From Aquificales bacterium (lineage in GTDB: Bacteria; Aquificota; Aquificia; Aquificales; Aquificaceae): DNA of 61,704 bases. Within the stretch, counting starts at the first letter, position 1. Each line of letters opens with the position of its first letter. The translations under genes and the position numbers were made by a program. The notes beneath the pieces are model-generated. The model was given only the letters and a program-made list of their open reading frames with translations. It was not told where the DNA came from and made no database searches. Below, piece by piece: positions 1-10,243 of the stretch. The stretch spans positions 1 through 61,704 of the forward strand of contig JALWBR010000042.1 of the NCBI GenBank assembly GCA_027037055.1, read 5' to 3'.

Positions 1-127
1 CAATATCAAGAATATCTTCAAAGTACTTACCTTTTATCCATGCGGATGCTATTTTCATGTTTTCTTGAGCGGATCTGACTATTTCCGTAATCTGGTTGAA
101 TATGTTGTCGCTTGTGAGAAGTTTCAT
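1..127 (-). CDS. Phospholipase D-like protein, N-terminal part only
   Basis: The gene reads leftward out of the window, so only about 42 codons are visible. The start ATG (complement of 125-127) is preceded by a full AGGAGG Shine-Dalgarno (complement of 135-140), so the start is well supported. The N-terminus has a Leu-Leu-Thr opening, then an amphipathic helix and an ASAWI strand. This resembles the start of PLD-like (PLDc_2) nuclease or helicase-associated proteins, which often open with a helix followed by an IASPYI-type strand. The catalytic HxK motifs would lie outside the window, so the family call is tentative. It is divergent from the BREX operon, and PLD-family nucleases are common in defence islands. 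Confidence 0.5.
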   Translation of the reverse strand, partial: MKLLTSDNIFNQITEIVRSAQENMKIASAWIKGKYFEDILDI

Positions 128-289
128 CCCCAAACCTCCTTGCACTTGGGTGGCGAAACCTTGGTTAATCTATAATTACATTTTAGTAAAATGCTATCGC
201 TTTTTCTTTTCTCCTACTGGCTGTTGTATAAAAATATTTTGGAGTCTATAAGCTTTGTAGCTTGAGAAGGATCTGTTATATAGATTTAC

Positions 290-295
290 TATAAT
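290..295 (+). promoter_or_regulatory. Possible -10 element of the BREX operon
   Basis: A TATAAT hexamer lies 19 nt before the brxP start in an AT-rich 187-nt divergent gap (128-314). No convincing -35 is present at 16-18 nt; a TTGAGA at 262-267 is 22 nt away. No Shine-Dalgarno precedes brxP. Nothing else is recognisable in the gap apart from a small AAGCT/AGCTT hairpin near 251-264. Confidence 0.3.
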
Positions 296-314
296 TTGGC
301 ATAAAATATAAGCT

Positions 315-2636
315 ATGTTTGCGCTAAAATGGGAGGGAGAAAATATATTAGCCCTCTCTCCTGAAGGAAAGGAAGTTGATTACTTCCCAGTATTCGCTGA
401 GGAGCTTACTATCTTAGGTTTAAACAAATACCTCAAATTCCCTCAGGATACCAAAGCTCCCCTTTTATGGGGCAGAGATATAAACCAGTTTGTTGAATAT
501 TACAAAGACGGCGAAATTGTGGCTAAGGTAAGAAAAGGAGCCTTATATAAAAACCACACAATAGAATATGTCCGTGAGGGGACAGAACTTAATCCAATAG
601 ATATAAAAAAACTCTGTGAAGTGAACTATAAATACATGAATGACCTTATTAATGAAGCTCTTGACTATATATACCTTGAGAAGAAAAGGCTCGGTAGGGA
701 GGGATATGCTGTCACAGTTTCCTACAGCGGAGGGAAGGATTCTCAAGTTGTGCTTGACTTAGTTCTTCAGGTAATTCCTTATGAGGAGCTTTATGTGGTT
801 TTCACTGATACAAAAATGGAACTTCCTGAAACCTACTATATGGTAGATTGGACAGAAAAGTATTATAGGCAAATCTATCTTTCTTTTAAAATACACAGGG
901 TAGGTTCAGTTTTTGATACTGCAGAGCTCTGGGAGATCTTTGGACCCCCGAGCAGGATAAAGCGCTGGTGCTGTAGTGTTTATAAGATAGCTCCTCAAAT
1001 AAAGTTTTTTGAACGAATAGGTTCTGATAGTTTCTACAAAACGATACTTGTCTTTGAAGGGACGAGGGCAGAAGAAAGCGCTCGGCGTAGTTGTTATGAG
1101 AGAACTTCTCCAAGAGAAAAGACTTTTAGAGAAATTAATTTGAAGCCTATTTTTAGATGGAACACCTTTGAGGTATTCCTGTATCACTTTTATAAAGGGC
1201 TTGAAATAAACCCTCTCTATAGGAAAGGTTTGAGGAGGGTAGGCTGTAGTGTATGTCCCTTTGCGAGCAACTGGTCTGAATACATAATCCAGAAAGAGCA
1301 TCCCGAGCATGCTAAAAAGTTCCTTTCCGTCCTTGAAAATTACGCAAGGAGGATGGGAGTATCTACTGAGAGCGAAATGAAAGAGTACATATCCTCGGGT
1401 GCGTGGAAGGCAAGAGCTGGCGGGCTCGGGCTTGAAAGCAATGTATGGGTTGAAGTAATGAGGAACGGCTCAGAATTAAAAGCGGTAATAGACAACGGCA
1501 GGGAGAGTATTACGGAGTGGATGAAGACAGTGGGAAACGTTCATATTCTAAAAGACGAAAAGGACCACACCTCGGGGGAGCTCCGTGTAGGCTCTGCTGT
1601 CATTCACTTTGATATAAAGAAGGAGGGAAACAGACACACTGTCCATTTCGGGAATGTGGATCCTCACCCCGCGATATACAGAAAACTGGAAAATGTCCTT
1701 TACAAAAGCGCCTACTGTTTACACTGCACAGGTTGCGAGGTTGAGTGTCCCTACCATGCAGTGATTACTTATCCAAGGGTGGTTGTCAACTCCCTCAGAT
1801 GCACACATTGCGGTAACTGTCTTGAGTTCATAGAAAGGGGGTGTTATGTGGCGGAGTCAGATAGAATAGTCTTGGGAGGAAGTTCAAATAGGGAGGCAAA
1901 AATGAAGGTCAATAGGTATTTTACATTCGGGCTTCGCAAACCTTGGCTGGAGAGTTTCTTAGAGAGGGGTTCAGAGTGGTTTACCAACAACACCCTTGGT
2001 CCAGATCAGAAAAAGGCTATGTATAACTATCTATATGATACGGAGCTAACAGACAAGGAAAAAAACTTAACCGAACTCTTTGAAATACTCACTAAGCTCT
2101 TCTATAAGGACCCAAACACGGTATGGCAGGTGGTATGGGTGAACTTATGTATAAACTCTGACCTGTTCAGATGGTATGTTCAGGAAATACCTTGGAACAA
2201 AAGCTGGACTAAAGAAGAGCTTGTAGCTCTTTTGGAGGAAAAAGGAGCCAAAAATAGAACCGCAAAGAATTCCGTAAATGCTCTTGCAAATACCTTTGAG
2301 AATTCTCCCCTTGGAAACTGGTTTGGGAAAAAGAAAAACAAAAAAACTTTCTACAAAGCAGGGACAAACGAAATTAGCCTCTGGGCTCTGGGATATGCAC
2401 TCTATAGACTCAAAGAACTTAAAGACTGGAAGGGAACAAGCGTCAGAGAAATCTATAGTCTCAAGAACGCAGGACCCTACGTTTGGTTTGGTATATCAAA
2501 AGACAGCTTCGTTAAAAAGCTCATGTCCCTAAAAGACCGTAAACTTATATCTGCAGATATAGTTGCAGACCTTGACAATATACACTTTCACGATGTTAGT
2601 CCACTTGATGTGCTTAAGGTAGCACTTAATGAGTAA
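315..2636 (+). CDS. brxP: BrxP: PAPS reductase / ferredoxin / DUF4007 fusion, type 4 BREX
   Basis: This 773-residue protein has three parts. Residues about 100-345 form a PAPS-reductase / DndC-like domain with the PP-loop SGGKDS (138-143), a CC pair (219-220), GTRAEES (249-255) and CSVC (311-314), the cysteine pattern expected for a 4Fe-4S cluster in CysH/DndC-like enzymes. Residues about 465-510 form a two-cluster ferredoxin (Cys 468/471/474/478 and 496/499/502/510). Residues about 531-773 form a DUF4007 domain. In type 4 BREX this gene takes the place of the PglX methylase. DndC-family enzymes take part in putting sulfur on DNA, so a sulfur-based DNA mark is a reasonable but unproven inference. 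No cysteine desulfurase (DndA/IscS) lies nearby. The gene overlaps the next one by 8 nt. No Shine-Dalgarno is visible at this ATG, but no other early Met fits. Confidence 0.85.
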   Translation: MFALKWEGENILALSPEGKEVDYFPVFAEELTILGLNKYLKFPQDTKAPLLWGRDINQFVEYYKDGEIVAKVRKGALYKNHTIEYVREGTELNPIDIKKLCEVNYKYMNDLINEALDYIYLEKKRLGREGYAVTVSYSGGKDSQVVLDLVLQVIPYEELYVVFTDTKMELPETYYMVDWTEKYYRQIYLSFKIHRVGSVFDTAELWEIFGPPSRIKRWCCSVYKIAPQIKFFERIGSDSFYKTILVFEGTRAEESARRSCYERTSPREKTFREINLKPIFRWNTFEVFLYHFYKGLEINPLYRKGLRRVGCSVCPFASNWSEYIIQKEHPEHAKKFLSVLENYARRMGVSTESEMKEYISSGAWKARAGGLGLESNVWVEVMRNGSELKAVIDNGRESITEWMKTVGNVHILKDEKDHTSGELRVGSAVIHFDIKKEGNRHTVHFGNVDPHPAIYRKLENVLYKSAYCLHCTGCEVECPYHAVITYPRVVVNSLRCTHCGNCLEFIERGCYVAESDRIVLGGSSNREAKMKVNRYFTFGLRKPWLESFLERGSEWFTNNTLGPDQKKAMYNYLYDTELTDKEKNLTELFEILTKLFYKDPNTVWQVVWVNLCINSDLFRWYVQEIPWNKSWTKEELVALLEEKGAKNRTAKNSVNALANTFENSPLGNWFGKKKNKKTFYKAGTNEISLWALGYALYRLKELKDWKGTSVREIYSLKNAGPYVWFGISKDSFVKKLMSLKDRKLISADIVADLDNIHFHDVSPLDVLKVALNE

Positions 2637-3225
2637 TTTGGATAGATATAGAACTTTTGGGTTGCGTGAAGTCTGGCTGGAAGGTTTCCTTGAAGGGCTT
2701 GATGTCTGGCTTAAAGATAACACGCCAGGTCCTGAGCAACTAAAGGCTTTCAAAAGATACATGAAAGATGCTGAGCTTCTTGATGACGAGGGAAGCCCAA
2801 CCGCTCTGGCTCGTGAAATGTCAGAGTTATATACGAAAGACAGACATGCTGTCTGGCAGATAGTTTGGCTTAAGCTATTTCTGAACTCACCCCTTTTTAA
2901 CTTCTACTGCTTGGAGGTTCCTTGGAAAGGCATCTGGACGAAAGAAGAGCTTGTATCCTTGATAAAAGAGAGAGGCTATGCGGAACGCACTGCAAGGAAT
3001 GCAGTAAATGCTCTTGTGAATACATTTGAGAACTCACCCCTCGGAGAATGGTTTGGAAGAAAATTAGAAAAGCGTAAATACCTAAAGGAGAGTCTCAGCA
3101 CCCTTAACTCCCCTGCCCTGAGATACGCCCTCGACAAGCTGGGAGAAGAGGCGGAGCTGTTTGAGAGTGTGTTCAGAATGAACAATCAAGACTTTCACTA
3201 TAATATGATGAGGACTAAAATATAA
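2629..3225 (+). CDS. Stand-alone DUF4007 protein, paralogue of the BrxP C-terminus
   Basis: The 198 residues align along most of their length with BrxP residues 531-773. Shared blocks include YxTFGLR near the N-terminus, WQxVW, a TKEELVxLxxE helix, a TAxNxVNAL helix and NTFENSPLGxWFG. It is about 45 residues shorter and lacks the final part of the BrxP domain. The start overlaps the brxP stop, so translation is probably coupled. The arrangement suggests a tandem duplication of the BrxP 3' end followed by divergence. DUF4007 has no settled function; the Thr-Ala-rich helix pair looks compatible with a winged-helix DNA-binding fold. A role as a regulatory or target-contacting partner in BREX is inference. 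Confidence 0.8.
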   Translation: MSNLDRYRTFGLREVWLEGFLEGLDVWLKDNTPGPEQLKAFKRYMKDAELLDDEGSPTALAREMSELYTKDRHAVWQIVWLKLFLNSPLFNFYCLEVPWKGIWTKEELVSLIKERGYAERTARNAVNALVNTFENSPLGEWFGRKLEKRKYLKESLSTLNSPALRYALDKLGEEAELFESVFRMNNQDFHYNMMRTKI

Positions 3226-3234
3226 TTGTTAGTG

Positions 3235-6200
3235 ATGAAACATAAGGATTTAATAGAGGTAAGGAGGGATTACAGACCGGTTTTCACCTTAGGGCAGGAG
3301 GAGAGTGAACTTACGTGGAAATCTTTCATACCTCATGCAAACTTCCTTGAGCTCTTGCAGAAAGTAATCAACATAGTAGGCGGGAAGGATAAGAGAACAG
3401 CTCTGTGGTTACAGGGCTCTTACGGCGTTGGGAAGAGCCATGCATGTAGTGTGATTGCTCACCTGCTTTCTGATTCGCTGGAAGAAATCAAAGACTATGT
3501 AGAAAAGGATATACAAAATCCCCAAATTGTGGGGCTTATTAAAAGCCTGAGAGAAAGAAAAATGTTCATCCCTGTTTATATAATAGGAACCGGAGATGTA
3601 CCAGCTCTGGAATACATGAGCTTTTATATAAAAAGCCACATAAAGAAGAGGTTGGTGGAATTAGGATTTAACACACCTATACCTCAAACAGAAGTGGAGC
3701 TTTTAATAGACCAAGTTAATAAAGAAGATGAAAGCCAAATCCTTGAGAAATTTCCAGAATACAGTTCAAAATCGGCTTTACTGGAAGACCTAAAAAAGAA
3801 TCCGCCTGATGATATAGCCCTGAGAAAAACTTACGACTATTTTGCGAAGAAGGGCATTCACATATCAAAAGACCTCAAGGGTTGGCTACAAGAGGTTAAC
3901 AGTATAATCCGAGAGAACGGATACTATGGGATACTTCTGATATGGGACGAGTTTACCCAGGTTTTGGATACGGGACTGAATTATCTGGAAAAGCTTCAGA
4001 ATTTACTGGCTGAAAATCCAAATCTGTATCTCATTGTGGTTAGCCATCGGATGGCTGATTTTTACAAAGAGCAGTTCGGTGAGACCTACCGCAAGGTTGC
4101 AGACCGCTTCGTCCACCATAAGCTTGAACTTGCGGAAACTACCGTCTTCCACATACTGAGGAGAGCCATAGATAGAAAAAATGGCTGGGAGGAGGCCCGA
4201 AATGCAAAGTTTGCAAGCCTGTCACATTTAATTGACCACATAACAAAGCTCTTTGAAACCCAAAAACCCAAGGCAGAAGACATACGTGACCTCTACCCGT
4301 TGCATCCCTATACAATACTCCTCGCCACTCATGTAGCTGAGAAGTTTTTCTCCTCAGGAAGGAGCATATTCGGTTACCTTTTTGAAGAAAACGGAGCACT
4401 TAAAAGACTAATGGAAAAGGATGTGGAGGAGGAGCCCTTCCTTACAGTAGATACACTGTGGGACTACTTCTCTAACCAGATAAGGGAGAGGGACTACGGA
4501 GATTTTGCCCGAGATGTGGTAAACCACTACACTAATCATGAAAGCAAAATAAGGGAGCTGGGAGAAGATTATATCAAGGTATTTAAAGCCTTAATGATAC
4601 TAAACCTTCTTTATAAGTTTACGGATTATCCACAAAGTTACCTGCACCCGACCGAAGAAAACGTTAAGATAGCATACACTGGAACTACTTTAGAAAATAA
4701 AGTTGGTAGCATCTTAGAAAATATACATAAGGAAAGCATTCTCCAAAAGAGTCCTGATGGAAAGTATCTGGTTCTTTCCACATCGTTACCAGAAGAAGAG
4801 CTTAAGGGTGAGGAAATAAGGTTAAAACAAGAATTTAAAGAAGCCTATAAAGTCATAGGTACTTATGCTAAAGAAAAGATGAAAGAAATTCTGTTGAAAG
4901 ACTTTTATAGAGAGGCGGATATATTAATTCTCGGTCCTGATGAATCATACAGATATAAAGTAAAGCCAAGCCATAGAATTCAAATGGTTATCGGCTTTCC
5001 CAAAACACCTGGGGAGAAGGAAGAGTACCGGGAGAAGTTTAAAAAAGCTTCAGAAGAATTTCCCTATGCTGTATTCATAGTTTGGGGTGATGAACTTAGG
5101 GAAGATAAACTATCAGAGTGGATTAAGTGGAAAGCAAGAGAAAAAATAGCAAATAGCCACAGATTAATTGAAGAGAAAAACTACGCCGAAGGAATGGCGA
5201 ACAAGATCTTAGAAGATTTCCTGAATAGAGATGTTCATCTGTATTTATTCTTCAGAAATAATGAAGAGAGGGTTTCAAAGCGGAGTATTCCATATTATCT
5301 TAAAAAATATTCTAAGGAAATATTCAACAAGGGACCTGATGTTTTGGACATTGAAAATAAAAATCTGTGGGACAAAGCTGGAAAAACTTTGCTGTCAAAA
5401 CTGGTAGCCTCTCAAAGGTCTGATGAACTGAGAGGGTATATATCAAGAGGACCAGAAAAAGACTTACAGCAAGCGTTATACGACGTGGACAGAAAAGAAA
5501 TTTTTCTTGAAGATTTATCCCTAAATCCTAAAGCTGACCCAAGCCATCCGATAGTGAATCTATCAAGGGAATTAGAAGACAAATTTAAGGAAAAACAAAG
5601 GTTGAAAGTTGAAGATTTAAAATTCCTGAGACAGCCTCCTTATGGGCTCTACAACAATAAGATAAGTGTCTTTATGCTCGCAACCGCTTTCAAACCTTTT
5701 CAAAATAAATTGCACAGAGTAGGGGTTGGTAGAGCATCTATTAAGGATTTAGAAGACTTTGCACGGGCTATCTTAGAAGAGAAAAGGAGCGATATAGAGC
5801 TTCGCTACGGAAGCGAAATTGAAGACAAACTTGCTGACTTTCTTAAGGATATCTTCAGTAATCTGGTTAATTTCAAGGAGGAAGATAAAGATCTCATAAG
5901 AGTTAGAAACACGATAAGGAATGAAATAAAGGATATAGGTATTCCCATATGGTCATTAGCCCATCTTGATGATAAGGTCTTAGGTGATTTTTGTTCCGAT
6001 ACAGAATTCCTAAAAGAAGTAATAAGAGAAATAGCAAAGTTTATCGCAAGCTCTGATACAGAATTTAAAGATGACTATATTTTGACCATAACTGATAATA
6101 TTGATAAACTTAAAAACTCCCTAAAACATTTATGCAGCAAGGAAAATCTTATAAAAGGAAGGCGGCTTTTCATAGAAAGGAAAATAGGGCAAAGGAAAAT

Positions 6201-6540
6201 TAGTAAGGAGGAATTAGGAAAAAAACTAAAGGAAAAGCTGTCTCAGAATGCTACCTTTTGGGATGAGAGCCAAGTTTCAAGCATTGTAGATGGATTAATA
6301 GAAGAGTTGGAGCGAGAAATTCAAAAGGAGCCTATTGAGAAACCAGATGGGAAAGATAAAGTAGGTGGAGCTGAACATACTGGTACAGATACTATGCCAG
6401 CTGGAGAACCTGACCTGAGATATATCTTACAAAACCTTGGACGTTTCGAACTTGTAAACTTAATAATAGATATTACTAAAGAATATCAAGAAATAGAAGG
6501 TTTTATCCTAAGCTGGTTGAAGAATAGAGATTATGTATAA
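3235..6540 (+). CDS. brxC: BrxC: large P-loop ATPase of BREX
   Basis: This is a large ATPase of about 1101 residues. The Walker A motif GSYGVGKS is at about 61-68, and the Walker B ILLIWDEF at about 233-240 is followed by a sensor-like strand and SHR. The rest is helix-rich and charged, as in the BrxC/PglY family, which runs about 1100-1250 residues and is present in every BREX type. It is the likely motor or scaffold of the complex. Three possible starts lie together: TTG 3226, GTG 3232 and ATG 3235. The ATG is chosen because none has a clear Shine-Dalgarno and ATG is the strongest codon. The gene follows the DUF4007 stop directly and overlaps pglZ by 8 nt. Confidence 0.85.
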   Translation: MKHKDLIEVRRDYRPVFTLGQEESELTWKSFIPHANFLELLQKVINIVGGKDKRTALWLQGSYGVGKSHACSVIAHLLSDSLEEIKDYVEKDIQNPQIVGLIKSLRERKMFIPVYIIGTGDVPALEYMSFYIKSHIKKRLVELGFNTPIPQTEVELLIDQVNKEDESQILEKFPEYSSKSALLEDLKKNPPDDIALRKTYDYFAKKGIHISKDLKGWLQEVNSIIRENGYYGILLIWDEFTQVLDTGLNYLEKLQNLLAENPNLYLIVVSHRMADFYKEQFGETYRKVADRFVHHKLELAETTVFHILRRAIDRKNGWEEARNAKFASLSHLIDHITKLFETQKPKAEDIRDLYPLHPYTILLATHVAEKFFSSGRSIFGYLFEENGALKRLMEKDVEEEPFLTVDTLWDYFSNQIRERDYGDFARDVVNHYTNHESKIRELGEDYIKVFKALMILNLLYKFTDYPQSYLHPTEENVKIAYTGTTLENKVGSILENIHKESILQKSPDGKYLVLSTSLPEEELKGEEIRLKQEFKEAYKVIGTYAKEKMKEILLKDFYREADILILGPDESYRYKVKPSHRIQMVIGFPKTPGEKEEYREKFKKASEEFPYAVFIVWGDELREDKLSEWIKWKAREKIANSHRLIEEKNYAEGMANKILEDFLNRDVHLYLFFRNNEERVSKRSIPYYLKKYSKEIFNKGPDVLDIENKNLWDKAGKTLLSKLVASQRSDELRGYISRGPEKDLQQALYDVDRKEIFLEDLSLNPKADPSHPIVNLSRELEDKFKEKQRLKVEDLKFLRQPPYGLYNNKISVFMLATAFKPFQNKLHRVGVGRASIKDLEDFARAILEEKRSDIELRYGSEIEDKLADFLKDIFSNLVNFKEEDKDLIRVRNTIRNEIKDIGIPIWSLAHLDDKVLGDFCSDTEFLKEVIREIAKFIASSDTEFKDDYILTITDNIDKLKNSLKHLCSKENLIKGRRLFIERKIGQRKISKEELGKKLKEKLSQNATFWDESQVSSIVDGLIEELEREIQKEPIEKPDGKDKVGGAEHTGTDTMPAGEPDLRYILQNLGRFELVNLIIDITKEYQEIEGFILSWLKNRDYV

Positions 6541-8713
6541 AGTTGTAGATAGTTTAAATTCCTTCCGGAGAGAGTTTGAAAATGAACTCAACAATCCATA
6601 TAACAGCACTTTGGGAGTGCGAATACTACTTTTTGATAGTTTTCAGGCTCTTAGAGACACAGAAAGCGAACTTTCTCGCCTCGGAGAAAAAATAGCGTAT
6701 TTAGAGGACCATGTTCCGCATGGAAAGAACTGGATGTCCTTAAATGACCTTAAAAAAACAATAGAAAGATTAATCAAAGAAAAAGGTGTGAGTTATCTCT
6801 TCTCGTTAGACAATTTGCTTCGTTTCTACAGCACTGATGAATTAAATGTCTTCTTATCAAATATCCTCAGAACCAGAACATACAAAGGTTACGCTGTCCT
6901 ATTATTGGCTGGCTTAAAGGAAAGGATAAAAGAAATAAGGGAATCTTACAGAGGTCAGATTTACGAAATTCAATCTGCTGGGGATAAGGTGAATATGTTT
7001 GTATTTAATCCAGAAATCAAAATTAAGCAGAAATGTATAGAAAATTTAAAGGAATTCTTAGGATGCTGGAAGAAGGAGGGAGTAAATTTTTATATAAAAC
7101 ATAGAGTGGTATATGAAAACCGCAAAAAAGCTTTTCCGGATACAGCGGTTGACGTTATTGAAATCAATAACTACGTTGACATTCTAAAAAAGATTGTGGA
7201 TTTCAAAGATGATATCTATTTCACTGATAGTGAATTTGAAAAGAAATTTGCTAACGAACTTTTAGAAAACGAAACTAGAATAAACTCCTTCAGGGATATG
7301 TTTCCATCTATAAATAATCTTACCAAATTTGCAGAAGCTTTCTTAAGAGAGGAAAAACAATTTAAACGCAACTTGTTACTGAATTTTGCTTATAATCATC
7401 TTTCAAATTACAAGAACTTACTTGATGAAAATAAACTGAGGTTTTTAATCAAGGTATACAGAGAGCTTGAAGATAAAGAAGAAAAACAAAAGATTTTGTC
7501 TCTTGCCGTAAAATTAGATTCCGCTTTTGAAAACCTTATCTGTGAGGAGCTTGGAGCTGTAAAAAAGGAGAATATAATTGGAATTTTGAAATGTGAAAAG
7601 AAAGAATTGTTAAACTTACTGAAGCGAGATGAGATTTCCTTTGAAGAGCTAAAATCTTATTCAGAGGACTTTTCAGCGTATCTTTACACACCAAAACCGC
7701 CAAATCTGAAAGATAATCAAGACTGGATTTTGGAATATATAGATTTATATAAAAAAAGCAAGCTCAAAGATAAACCGCTCAGAGAGCTTGAAAGCTTGCT
7801 TAAAGAAAAGAATTCAAATTTCTATGATTGGTATTATGATTTTGACTGGGTTTTGGATTTAGCTAATAACTGGAAAAATAGGGTTGAGAGGGTTGTCTGG
7901 ATTGATGCTTTGGGATTTGAATGGGCTGGCTTTATCTTACGATATTTGGAAAGAAAAGGAATTCCTGTTTACGCATTTTATATAGGCAGGGCTAACATCC
8001 CTTCAATTACAGAAATAAACAAGCCAAATTTTGATGTTTCAGAGGTTCGCGAGTTTGATGAATTGATTCACAAAAGATACGAATTTCCTGACACTATTAT
8101 CAGGCAAATAGAGTTACTTAAAGAAATTCTTGATAAAGAAATAAGTGCCGAGAGAAAAACGCTTTTATTTTCAGACCATGGAAGCTCGGCTCTTATAAGA
8201 CTTTATGAACCAATGAAACTTCTCGCAGATGTTAAGTTTGAACATGGTGGAAGATACTTTAAAGGATATATTGAACATGACTTCAAGAATGAGGAAGTTA
8301 TTAAACATGCAGAAAATGGAGAAGTATTTTATATAGCTGCTACTCATAAATCTATTAATGCTAAGCCCCAAGGAGAGGCTCACGGGGGAACAACTCCAGA
8401 AGAGTTGCTTACCTTTGCTATGATAGTGGGTGGACATGAACACGTCTCTTATAGTGTAGATATCCCTAATAAGGAAATTAGTAGAAGAGAAAAGAAACTA
8501 CTGGTTCGTATAAAGCCAGTACCGGAGGTAAGCGTTGAATTCACCGTAGATGGCCGTTCTGTCGAATACCAAAAAGAAAGTGACACGGATTATACAGTAA
8601 ATCTGACTAATATAAGGTCCGGCAAGCACATTATTGAGGTTAAGATAGGATCTAATATTTATAAAGAAGAATTTTGCATAATTGGTGGTATGGAAGAGGA
8701 GTTTTCATTATGA
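6533..8713 (+). CDS. pglZ: PglZ: alkaline-phosphatase-fold BREX protein
   Basis: The 726-residue protein has an unassigned helical N-terminal half (1-440) and a C-terminal PglZ domain of the alkaline phosphatase superfamily. Visible metal-site motifs are WIDALG (456-461), SDHGS (547-551) and HGGTTPEE (617-624). A small beta-rich segment follows (about 655-720) that may be an Ig-like tail. PglZ is the signature protein of BREX and binds metal in characterised homologues; its exact reaction is not settled. By eye the gene is the most AT-rich in the window. It overlaps brxC at its start and shares an ATGA stop/start with brxL. Confidence 0.87.
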   Translation: MYKVVDSLNSFRREFENELNNPYNSTLGVRILLFDSFQALRDTESELSRLGEKIAYLEDHVPHGKNWMSLNDLKKTIERLIKEKGVSYLFSLDNLLRFYSTDELNVFLSNILRTRTYKGYAVLLLAGLKERIKEIRESYRGQIYEIQSAGDKVNMFVFNPEIKIKQKCIENLKEFLGCWKKEGVNFYIKHRVVYENRKKAFPDTAVDVIEINNYVDILKKIVDFKDDIYFTDSEFEKKFANELLENETRINSFRDMFPSINNLTKFAEAFLREEKQFKRNLLLNFAYNHLSNYKNLLDENKLRFLIKVYRELEDKEEKQKILSLAVKLDSAFENLICEELGAVKKENIIGILKCEKKELLNLLKRDEISFEELKSYSEDFSAYLYTPKPPNLKDNQDWILEYIDLYKKSKLKDKPLRELESLLKEKNSNFYDWYYDFDWVLDLANNWKNRVERVVWIDALGFEWAGFILRYLERKGIPVYAFYIGRANIPSITEINKPNFDVSEVREFDELIHKRYEFPDTIIRQIELLKEILDKEISAERKTLLFSDHGSSALIRLYEPMKLLADVKFEHGGRYFKGYIEHDFKNEEVIKHAENGEVFYIAATHKSINAKPQGEAHGGTTPEELLTFAMIVGGHEHVSYSVDIPNKEISRREKKLLVRIKPVPEVSVEFTVDGRSVEYQKESDTDYTVNLTNIRSGKHIIEVKIGSNIYKEEFCIIGGMEEEFSL

Positions 8714-10143
8714 CAGAATTAGATGAAAAGATAAAAGATATTTTTGTTGAGGAAAGCGTTTATAAGGACGACAAAATACGTGCTATATTTTCTGGCTGGA
8801 ACATACCTTCCTTTATAAAGGACTGGTTAATTAACAGATATACAGATAAAACAACTGGAATGGTTGATAAAGAAGGAATACTTGAATTTTTGGAAAGACA
8901 CATGCCCTGGAAAGGACTAAAAGGAGAACTCGTAAACCATCCATTTCGCTCCTATAAAGTATTAGCCCGAATAATTACTGAGCCGGATGTGAGGCAAGGT
9001 TTTATAAGATTTTATGCCCCAGATTTAGGAATAAGACCCGAGGAGGGCATAGTATCTCCCATGCTTTTATCCACACAGGAAGGTAAACACTTATCTATGG
9101 GAGAATTTTGGGGCGTTTGTGAGCTAACATATATCAAGGAGAATGATAAGCCAGGTTATATAGAGCTTTCAGGTTTTAAACCCTTTAAACCTTACAAGGT
9201 TAACTTGGACTACTATATAGAAGCCAGAAAAGAATTTACAACTCAGCAGTGGATAGACGTGCTTATAAAATCAATGGAATTTAACCCGGATGCATTGAGC
9301 TTCGATGAAAAACTATTATTATTGTGTAGGCTTACTGTATTTGTAGAGCCAAATCTAAATCTTATAGAGTTAGCCCCTAAAGGGACTGGAAAATCTTACG
9401 TTTTTTCTAATTTATCTAAGTACGGCTGGGTTATGAGTGGAGGGTTTGTTTCCCGTGCCAAATTATTCTACGACCTTCAAAGAAAAATGGAAGGAATTGT
9501 ATCACGGTATGACTTTATAGTATTAGATGAAGTCCAGACTGTTAAATTCAGTGACGAAAATGAAATGCGTGGTGTTTTAAAAAGCTATCTTGAAAATGGA
9601 ACTTATAATATAGGAAACTTTAGGGGTGTATCAGAAGCTGGTTTTGTAATTCTGGGAAACATACCTTTAACTGAAGACCGAACCCCTAAACGTGGTATGT
9701 ATTTTGAGGAATTGCCTATTGTTTTCCAAGAATCTGCACTGATAGATAGATTCCATGGCTTTATAGAAGGGTGGAAATTGCCTCGATTTAATGAAAGTTT
9801 AAAAGTAAAAGGTTATGCTCTTAATGTGGAGTTTTTTTCAGATGTTCTTCATCTTCTACGAAGTAGAGGAGAATACGCTGCCTTTGTGGGGGATATTTTG
9901 GAAGTTCCACCTAGAGCGGACACACGGGACAAAAAAGCAATAGTTAAGCTAACCACAGCTTTATTAAAGCTTATATTTCCCAAAGTTCCTTTACAAAATA
10001 ATGAAATAAAGGAATTTAGGGAATTATGCCTTGATTTAGCAAAGGACTTAAGACGGGTAATAAAAGAACAATTATATATAATGGATGCTGAATATAGTAG
10101 AGAGATACCAGATATAAGTGTACGGGGGGATGAAATTCAATAA
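8710..10143 (+). CDS. brxL: BrxL: AAA+ ATPase, short form without Lon protease domain
   Basis: The ATG at 8710 overlaps the pglZ stop (ATGA) and follows a GGAAGAGGAG ribosome site. An upstream in-frame TTG at 8674 would extend it by 12 residues but lacks such a site. The 477-residue product has Walker A APKGTGKS (222-229) and Walker B FIVLDE (269-274), then the AAA+ region with the conserved DRFHGF stretch. Long BrxL proteins (about 680 residues) continue into a Lon-like protease domain. Here the reading frame ends just after the helical region, and nothing downstream continues it. A shorter BrxL-related family of about 470 residues exists from memory, so this is probably the natural form rather than a truncation. 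Confidence 0.8.
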   Translation: MTELDEKIKDIFVEESVYKDDKIRAIFSGWNIPSFIKDWLINRYTDKTTGMVDKEGILEFLERHMPWKGLKGELVNHPFRSYKVLARIITEPDVRQGFIRFYAPDLGIRPEEGIVSPMLLSTQEGKHLSMGEFWGVCELTYIKENDKPGYIELSGFKPFKPYKVNLDYYIEARKEFTTQQWIDVLIKSMEFNPDALSFDEKLLLLCRLTVFVEPNLNLIELAPKGTGKSYVFSNLSKYGWVMSGGFVSRAKLFYDLQRKMEGIVSRYDFIVLDEVQTVKFSDENEMRGVLKSYLENGTYNIGNFRGVSEAGFVILGNIPLTEDRTPKRGMYFEELPIVFQESALIDRFHGFIEGWKLPRFNESLKVKGYALNVEFFSDVLHLLRSRGEYAAFVGDILEVPPRADTRDKKAIVKLTTALLKLIFPKVPLQNNEIKEFRELCLDLAKDLRRVIKEQLYIMDAEYSREIPDISVRGDEIQ

Positions 10144-10243
10144 TTATACTATTTGTAAGGTGGAAATGTGTATTTAAAATCTACGGTATTTATAATAAAA
10201 TGTGAACTGTACTAATGAAAGTTTAAAAAGGAAGAATTCACTT

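What the first reader, a model, noticed from the sequence alone, without database searches (positions are those of the whole stretch)
315..10143. Compact type 4 BREX system built around a sulfur-chemistry protein in place of a methylase
The operon order is BrxP, DUF4007, BrxC, PglZ, BrxL, with overlapping starts and stops throughout. Seen directly: BrxP carries a PAPS-reductase / DndC-like PP-loop, a CC plus CxxC cluster site and a two-cluster ferredoxin; there is no PglX methylase, BrxA or BrxB. From known families, DndC-like proteins place sulfur on DNA. The inference is that self-DNA is marked by a sulfur-based or redox-dependent modification rather than methylation. The AT-rich composition suggests horizontal gain. 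Type 4 is among the least characterised BREX types, and this looks like a thermophilic version suited to biochemistry.
Basis: partly seen in the sequence, partly recalled or inferred. Interest (0 to 1): 0.78.

Follow-up and report, generated by a model that had tools for sequence, protein, structure and literature searches.

The report
Type 4 BREX with doubled DNA-binding subunit
This is a complete type 4 BREX anti-virus operon, a known kind of defence that very probably tags the cell's own DNA with sulfur; its one unusual feature is an extra, shortened copy of its DNA-binding subunit, and it was probably gained recently by a heat-loving bacterium.

Summary
Bases 315-10143 hold an intact type 4 BREX operon: brxP, a DUF4007-like gene, brxC, pglZ, brxL. 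In 45 BrxP sequences 11 of 12 cluster cysteines are invariant and the twelfth nearly so. The sulfur idea is not new: published work already assigns DNA phosphorothioation to type 4 BREX (PMC11931770, PMC12839542). The fold of BrxP agrees: APS-reductase-like PP-loop in front, SspB-like domain behind.

(1) The second gene is a shortened paralogue of BrxP's own C-terminal domain (51% identity), predicted to fold like SspB. A second stand-alone copy occurs in 10 of 80 related loci, and one common origin is rejected (AU p = 0.005). It is kept under purifying selection. So 'no BrxA' is wrong, because DUF4007 is the BrxA/SspB counterpart. (2) Two congeners carry about 120 bp where this genome carries 10.1 kb, so the operon was gained, or lost in the congeners, as one block.

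Verdict: a known system with an apparently unreported variation. The doubled subunit is the part worth testing. Phosphorothioate itself was not measured.

The parts
315..2636 (+). brxP, 773 aa: N-terminal domain, PP-loop (PAPS/APS-reductase-like) domain with CC + CxxC, alpha/beta linker, 2[4Fe-4S] ferredoxin, C-terminal SspB/BrxA-like DUF4007 (from residue about 532)
   Evidence: PADLOC BrxP 1.3e-216; PF01507; AlphaFold model pLDDT 85.8, Foldseek to APS reductase and SspB; invariant cysteines
2629..3225 (+). stand-alone, shortened paralogue of BrxP's DUF4007 domain, 198 aa; keeps the first about 180 of 249 domain positions
   Evidence: 51% identity to BrxP 532-701; HMM hit 1-181/249; model pLDDT 93.8 with SspB 6JUF as top PDB match; dN/dS 0.076 against L032
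3235..6540 (+). brxC (SspC-like AAA+ ATPase); Walker A GSYGVGKS and WDEF motif conserved in an alignment of 10 sequences; the ORF opens at TTG 3226
6533..8713 (+). pglZ, BREX-4 type; D462, D513, SDHG 551-554, H575 and H621 (numbered on the stop-to-stop ORF) invariant in an alignment of 10 sequences
   Evidence: NF033445 3.8e-83
8710..10143 (+). brxL, short type without a C-terminal protease extension; Walker A and B motifs intact; the ORF opens at TTG 8674
   Evidence: TIGR02688 2.7e-131; PF13337 and PF20442
131..10212 (.). block present here and absent at the same place in congeners G001 and G002, where 100-130 bp of unrelated intergenic DNA lie instead; ends approximate
1..126 (-). 5' end of a PLD-nuclease/HerA-type ATPase gene that runs off the contig; read more fully in congener G001
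   Evidence: sequence; L206 ORF 276-1400; PADLOC HerA and DrmC matches

Best explanation
This is a complete, probably functional type 4 BREX defence operon. Proposed working: a household NifS/IscS-type cysteine desulfurase supplies sulfur; the PP-loop domain of BrxP activates the DNA phosphate with ATP and inserts sulfur; the two-cluster ferredoxin domain carries electrons or sulfur; SspB/BrxA-like triple-HTH domains choose (and, as in SspB, may nick) the target site; BrxC is the AAA+ scaffold that loads the complex on DNA. PglZ (nuclease-like) and BrxL (AAA+) act against DNA that lacks the mark. The extra gene, a shortened copy of the target-recognition domain, most likely pairs with BrxP's own domain, in place of a homodimer like that of SspB, or broadens site recognition. 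Shown here: gene content, family assignment, conserved catalytic and cluster residues, predicted folds, the paralogy and its repeated origin, and gain or loss as a block. Inferred: the sulfur mark in this organism, the electron or sulfur role of the ferredoxin, and the pairing.
For: Family matches of all core genes. Same gene order brxP-(DUF4007)-brxC-pglZ-brxL in dozens of loci from many phyla. Foldseek: BrxP to APS reductases (4bwv, 2goy) and to SspB (6juf, 6lb9), E 1e-7 to 1e-5; ORF2 to SspB 6juf, probability 1.00, TM 0.63. BrxC matches SspC and BrxP matches SspD/DndC profiles. Type 4 BREX = phosphorothioation in PMC11931770 and PMC12839542; DUF4007 = BrxA-like and equated with SspB (PMC12839542); SspB is a dimeric nickase whose interface is vital (PMC9240713, PMC7188994). 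A NifS-like desulfurase exists elsewhere in the genome. Second copy.
Against: No modification or phage assay can be run here. Rakesh and Krishnan note that BrxP lacks the DndC cysteine dyad (PMC12839542), so the chemistry may differ in detail. The desulfurase is not in the operon, although many type 4 loci also lack one there (56% have one in PMC12839542). The pairing of ORF2 with BrxP is not modelled. The Foldseek E-value for ORF2 alone is only 0.025.
Confidence: 0.85

Rival explanations
1. ORF2 is a decaying leftover of a duplication with no function, and the operon works exactly like single-copy type 4 BREX.
For: It lacks the last third of the domain; about 70 of 80 related loci do without it; Pfam DUF4007 does not detect it.
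Against: The frame is kept in four Aquificota genomes, shortened at the same point, with a similar tail; dN/dS 0.076 against L032 (dS near saturation); high-confidence compact fold, pLDDT 93.8; a second copy arose at least twice.
Confidence: 0.12
2. BrxP makes a different sulfur- or redox-dependent mark, or acts on RNA or nucleotides rather than on the DNA backbone.
For: The core resembles archaeal PP-loop/ferredoxin proteins of unknown role (PRK13795 group, 1e-47) and tRNA sulfur transferases such as TtuA; it lacks the DndC dyad (PMC12839542).
Against: Fusion to an SspB-like DNA-binding domain and linkage to SspC-like BrxC; phosphorothioates attributed to brxPCZL in the literature (PMC11931770).
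Confidence: 0.08
3. BrxP is a sulfate-assimilation PAPS/APS reductase that lies by chance beside BREX genes.
For: PP-loop domain, CC + CxxC site, and APS reductases as best fold matches.
Against: BrxP profile 1.3e-216 over 739 residues; no conserved cysteine outside the clusters, so no ECGLH-type catalytic cysteine; a separate CysH-like gene in the genome; constant linkage to brxC-pglZ-brxL.
Confidence: 0.02

Closest known systems
Type 4 BREX (brxP-brxC-pglZ-brxL); phosphorothioation per Yuan et al. (cited in PMC11931770) and Rakesh & Krishnan 2026 (PMC12839542)
   Same: All core genes, their order, BrxP domain layout, BREX-4 PglZ, short BrxL
   Different: An additional stand-alone, shortened DUF4007 gene besides the one fused to BrxP; no cysteine desulfurase in the operon
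SspABCD phosphorothioation system
   Same: SspB-like fold (ORF2 and the BrxP C-terminus), SspC-like BrxC, SspD-like PP-loop protein
   Different: SspB and SspD functions are fused in BrxP; PglZ and BrxL are present; the defence effectors SspE or SspFGH are not in the operon
Archaeal PRK13795-type PP-loop/ferredoxin proteins
   Same: PP-loop plus linker plus ferredoxin over BrxP residues 93-505
   Different: The match does not extend over the BrxP DUF4007 domain; not known as BREX parts

Membership tests
Type 4 BREX | BrxP (PAPS-reductase-like) in place of a PglX methylase | tested here: met
   PADLOC BrxP 1.3e-216; no methylase ORF in the operon
Type 4 BREX | BrxC, PglZ of BREX-4 type and BrxL in one operon | tested here: met
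   motifs intact
Type 4 BREX | DUF4007 (BrxA/SspB-like) domain, usually fused to BrxP | tested here: met
   fused and in addition stand-alone
Type 4 BREX | BrxB-like iSTAND domain at the N-terminus of PglZ (in 64% of taxa, PMC12839542) | not tested
   no fold prediction of PglZ was run
Type 4 BREX | cysteine desulfurase, in the operon or supplied by the host | tested here: met
   none in the operon; NifS-like 415-codon ORF at G000:C46
Type 4 BREX | phosphorothioate in genomic DNA; phage protection | not testable with these tools
   needs LC-MS/MS and phage assays
Ssp system | SspB-like nickase fold | tested here: met
   6juf and 6lb9; nickase activity itself not testable
Ssp system | restriction partner SspE or SspFGH next to the modification genes | tested here: not met
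   no such match in the operon or in the three following ORFs scanned
Sulfate-assimilation PAPS/APS reductase (CysH) | extra catalytic cysteine near the C-terminus (ECGLH type) outside the cluster ligands | tested here: not met
   only the 12 cluster cysteines are conserved in 45 BrxP sequences

The most novel reading that the evidence does not exclude
In Aquificota, and independently in another set of lineages, type 4 BREX evolved a two-part target-recognition unit: BrxP's SspB-like domain plus a separate SspB-like subunit form an asymmetric pair that sets a different or second phosphorothioation motif, much as two target-recognition domains do in type I restriction systems.
Probability: 0.3. 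Interest if true: 0.5.

Novelty: new variant of a known kind. Interest (0 to 1): 0.32.

Why it matters
The sulfur mark of type 4 BREX is already reported, so the general claim adds little. The doubled recognition subunit is useful: it offers a natural comparison (one copy against two) for asking what the SspB/BrxA-like domain does in choosing and nicking target sites. The proteins are from Aquificaceae, a thermophilic family, and have full-length close relatives (83%, 73% and 57% identical), which makes them attractive for biochemistry. The occupied and empty sites among congeners would let one compare marked and unmarked genomes in one genus.

Tried and rejected
Pfam DUF4007 on the own genome rang nowhere, not even in controls, so it says nothing. 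Pfam and PDB sequence searches on ORF2 found no useful match; only the fold search did. The idea that all stand-alone copies are one old gene was rejected (AU p = 0.005; four long-branched domains, L063_S and L070_F/S/T, left out of that test; it assumes the group was named before the tree). The idea that the 145-residue ORF between brxP and brxC in Bacteroidales loci is a sulfur-binding or DUF4007 domain found no support. The plasmid search gave one complete relative, on Methanosphaera pNP174 (two versions of one record), without the second copy. dN/dS could be estimated only for close pairs because synonymous sites are mostly saturated. Supplementary files of PMC12839542 could not be read, so I cannot exclude that the second copy is listed there.

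Full report
The claim.

What is there. Five same-strand ORFs match the claim: brxP 315-2636, a small gene 2629-3225, brxC (ATG 3235)-6540, pglZ 6533-8713 and brxL (ATG 8710)-10143. Family searches are unambiguous for four of them. PglZ matches the BREX-4-specific model at twice its cut-off. Catalytic motifs of BrxC, PglZ and BrxL are invariant against nine relatives from several phyla, so nothing looks broken. A sigma-70 consensus scan found no more promoter-like sites than shuffled sequence, which is uninformative.

BrxP. A model from 28 sequences (pLDDT 85.8, pTM 0.66) compared with the PDB gives APS/PAPS reductases for the PP-loop part and SspB (6juf, 6lb9) as a separate strong match. Given the sequence homology, the SspB match is the C-terminal part. 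Across 45 BrxP sequences, C219, C311, C314 and all eight ferredoxin cysteines never change, and C220 is T or S in three. No other cysteine is conserved. BrxP therefore lacks the extra catalytic cysteine of sulfate-assimilation reductases (family knowledge). Its first cluster may need only three cysteine ligands, as described for DndC (PMC10853773). How sulfur is carried is unknown; the cluster itself is a candidate (inference). The genome has a separate CysH-like gene and a NifS/IscS-type desulfurase. NCBIfam links BrxP residues 93-505 to archaeal PP-loop/ferredoxin proteins of unknown role.

The small gene. It is 51% identical over 170 residues to BrxP 532-701 but ends after about two thirds of the domain. 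It is predicted to fold compactly (pLDDT 93.8), and its best PDB match is SspB (probability 1.00, TM 0.63, E 0.025). SspB is the nickase of the Ssp phosphorothioation system, dimeric in the crystal with an interface vital for function (PMC9240713, PMC7188994). DUF4007 is described as the BrxA-like part of type 4 BREX and equated with SspB (PMC12839542). So the operon has two target-recognition domains: one fused, one free.

How widespread the second copy is. Of 80 related loci fetched from species genomes (the nearest 80 of 277, so not a fair sample), 10 besides the window carry a stand-alone DUF4007 directly after brxP: three Aquificota (L032, L033, L035), and L040, L041 (Desulfobacteraceae), L046, L050 (Syntrophaceae), L051 (Caldisericum), L063 (Coprothermobacteraceae) and L070 (Cryosericum, with a third copy). 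The Aquificota copies are shortened; L063 matches only the first 180 positions; most others match the domain in full. In the tree the Aquificota free copies are sister to the Aquificota fused domains (95/84), within a 100/98 group that includes the Desulfurobacterium fused domain. With long-branch rows removed that split has 86/87 support, and holding all free copies together is rejected (p-AU 0.005). So the second copy arose at least twice: once within Aquificota by duplication of the fused domain, and once or more elsewhere, where retention of an old free SspB-like gene is also possible. Between the window and L032, dN/dS is 0.076 for the free copy and 0.047 for BrxP 1-530, so the free copy is constrained.

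Horizontal gain. Full-length BrxP occurs in 5 of 136 genomes of the phylum, one of them cut by a contig end; a profile of the domain finds the same five. In two congeners the flanks of the operon lie about 113-126 bp apart. Alignment shows that window about 131-10212 is replaced there by unrelated intergenic DNA, with no clear target-site repeat. The flanks of the relatives L005/L032, L020/L033 and L021/L035 differ. The operon sits beside a PLD-HerA gene also present in the congeners, so the site is already a small defence locus. GC (38.0% against 42.4%) agrees, but gain and loss cannot be told apart by the empty sites alone.

Comparison with the literature. Type 4 BREX as a phosphorothioation system is stated in PMC11931770 (brxPCZL, citing Yuan et al.) and treated at length in PMC12839542, which also describes the ferredoxin-like region of BrxP, the absence of the DndC cysteine dyad and the frequent fusion of DUF4007. 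I could not read Yuan et al. itself. None of the passages I read mentions a second, free DUF4007 beside the fused one, nor Aquificota; supplements were out of reach.

Conclusion. The new element is a repeatedly evolved second recognition subunit, of modest but testable interest.

Noticed in passing
L112 7911-9647 and 9654-11261 (IMGVR_UViG_3300028048_000009); similar L113, L114: A viral contig with a lysozyme-like gene, a DNA adenine methylase-like gene and a helicase-like gene encodes two tandem BrxP-like proteins (PP-loop plus ferredoxin, about 31% identical to BrxP) without the DUF4007 domain. The first ends in a zinc-finger-like segment resembling the about 65-residue protein found between brxP and brxC in Lachnospiraceae BREX loci. 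Possibly phage-borne sulfur chemistry.
   Followed up: partly
L087 4558-4999, L095 12442-12884, L106 12442-12866, L076 12505-12927, L105 12475-12902, L090 12472-12839: In many Bacteroidales type 4 loci an ORF of about 145-160 residues with no Pfam match (and, for L106, no PADLOC or NCBIfam match) sits between brxP and brxC; Lachnospiraceae have a small zinc-finger-like protein there and L061 a Fic protein, so this slot looks like an accessory-gene site.
   Followed up: partly
L058 267-3863: In a Methanothermococcus MAG, brxP is fused in frame to what looks like an internal part of BrxC, with no pglZ or brxL found in the stretch: probably a deletion remnant of the operon.
   Followed up: partly
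L111 9992-16232; L041 16576-18981: Helicobacteraceae UBA6016 brxP and brxC and Desulfobacteraceae pglZ are split over several frames: decaying operons or assembly errors.
   Followed up: no
L070 12305-13944: Candidatus Cryosericum hinesii has three DUF4007 domains in a row (one fused, two stand-alone) with very long branches.
   Followed up: no
window 1-126 (-); L206 276-1400: The contig begins inside a PLD-nuclease/HerA-type ATPase fusion gene, read further in the congener; a second defence-type gene beside the BREX insertion.
   Followed up: partly
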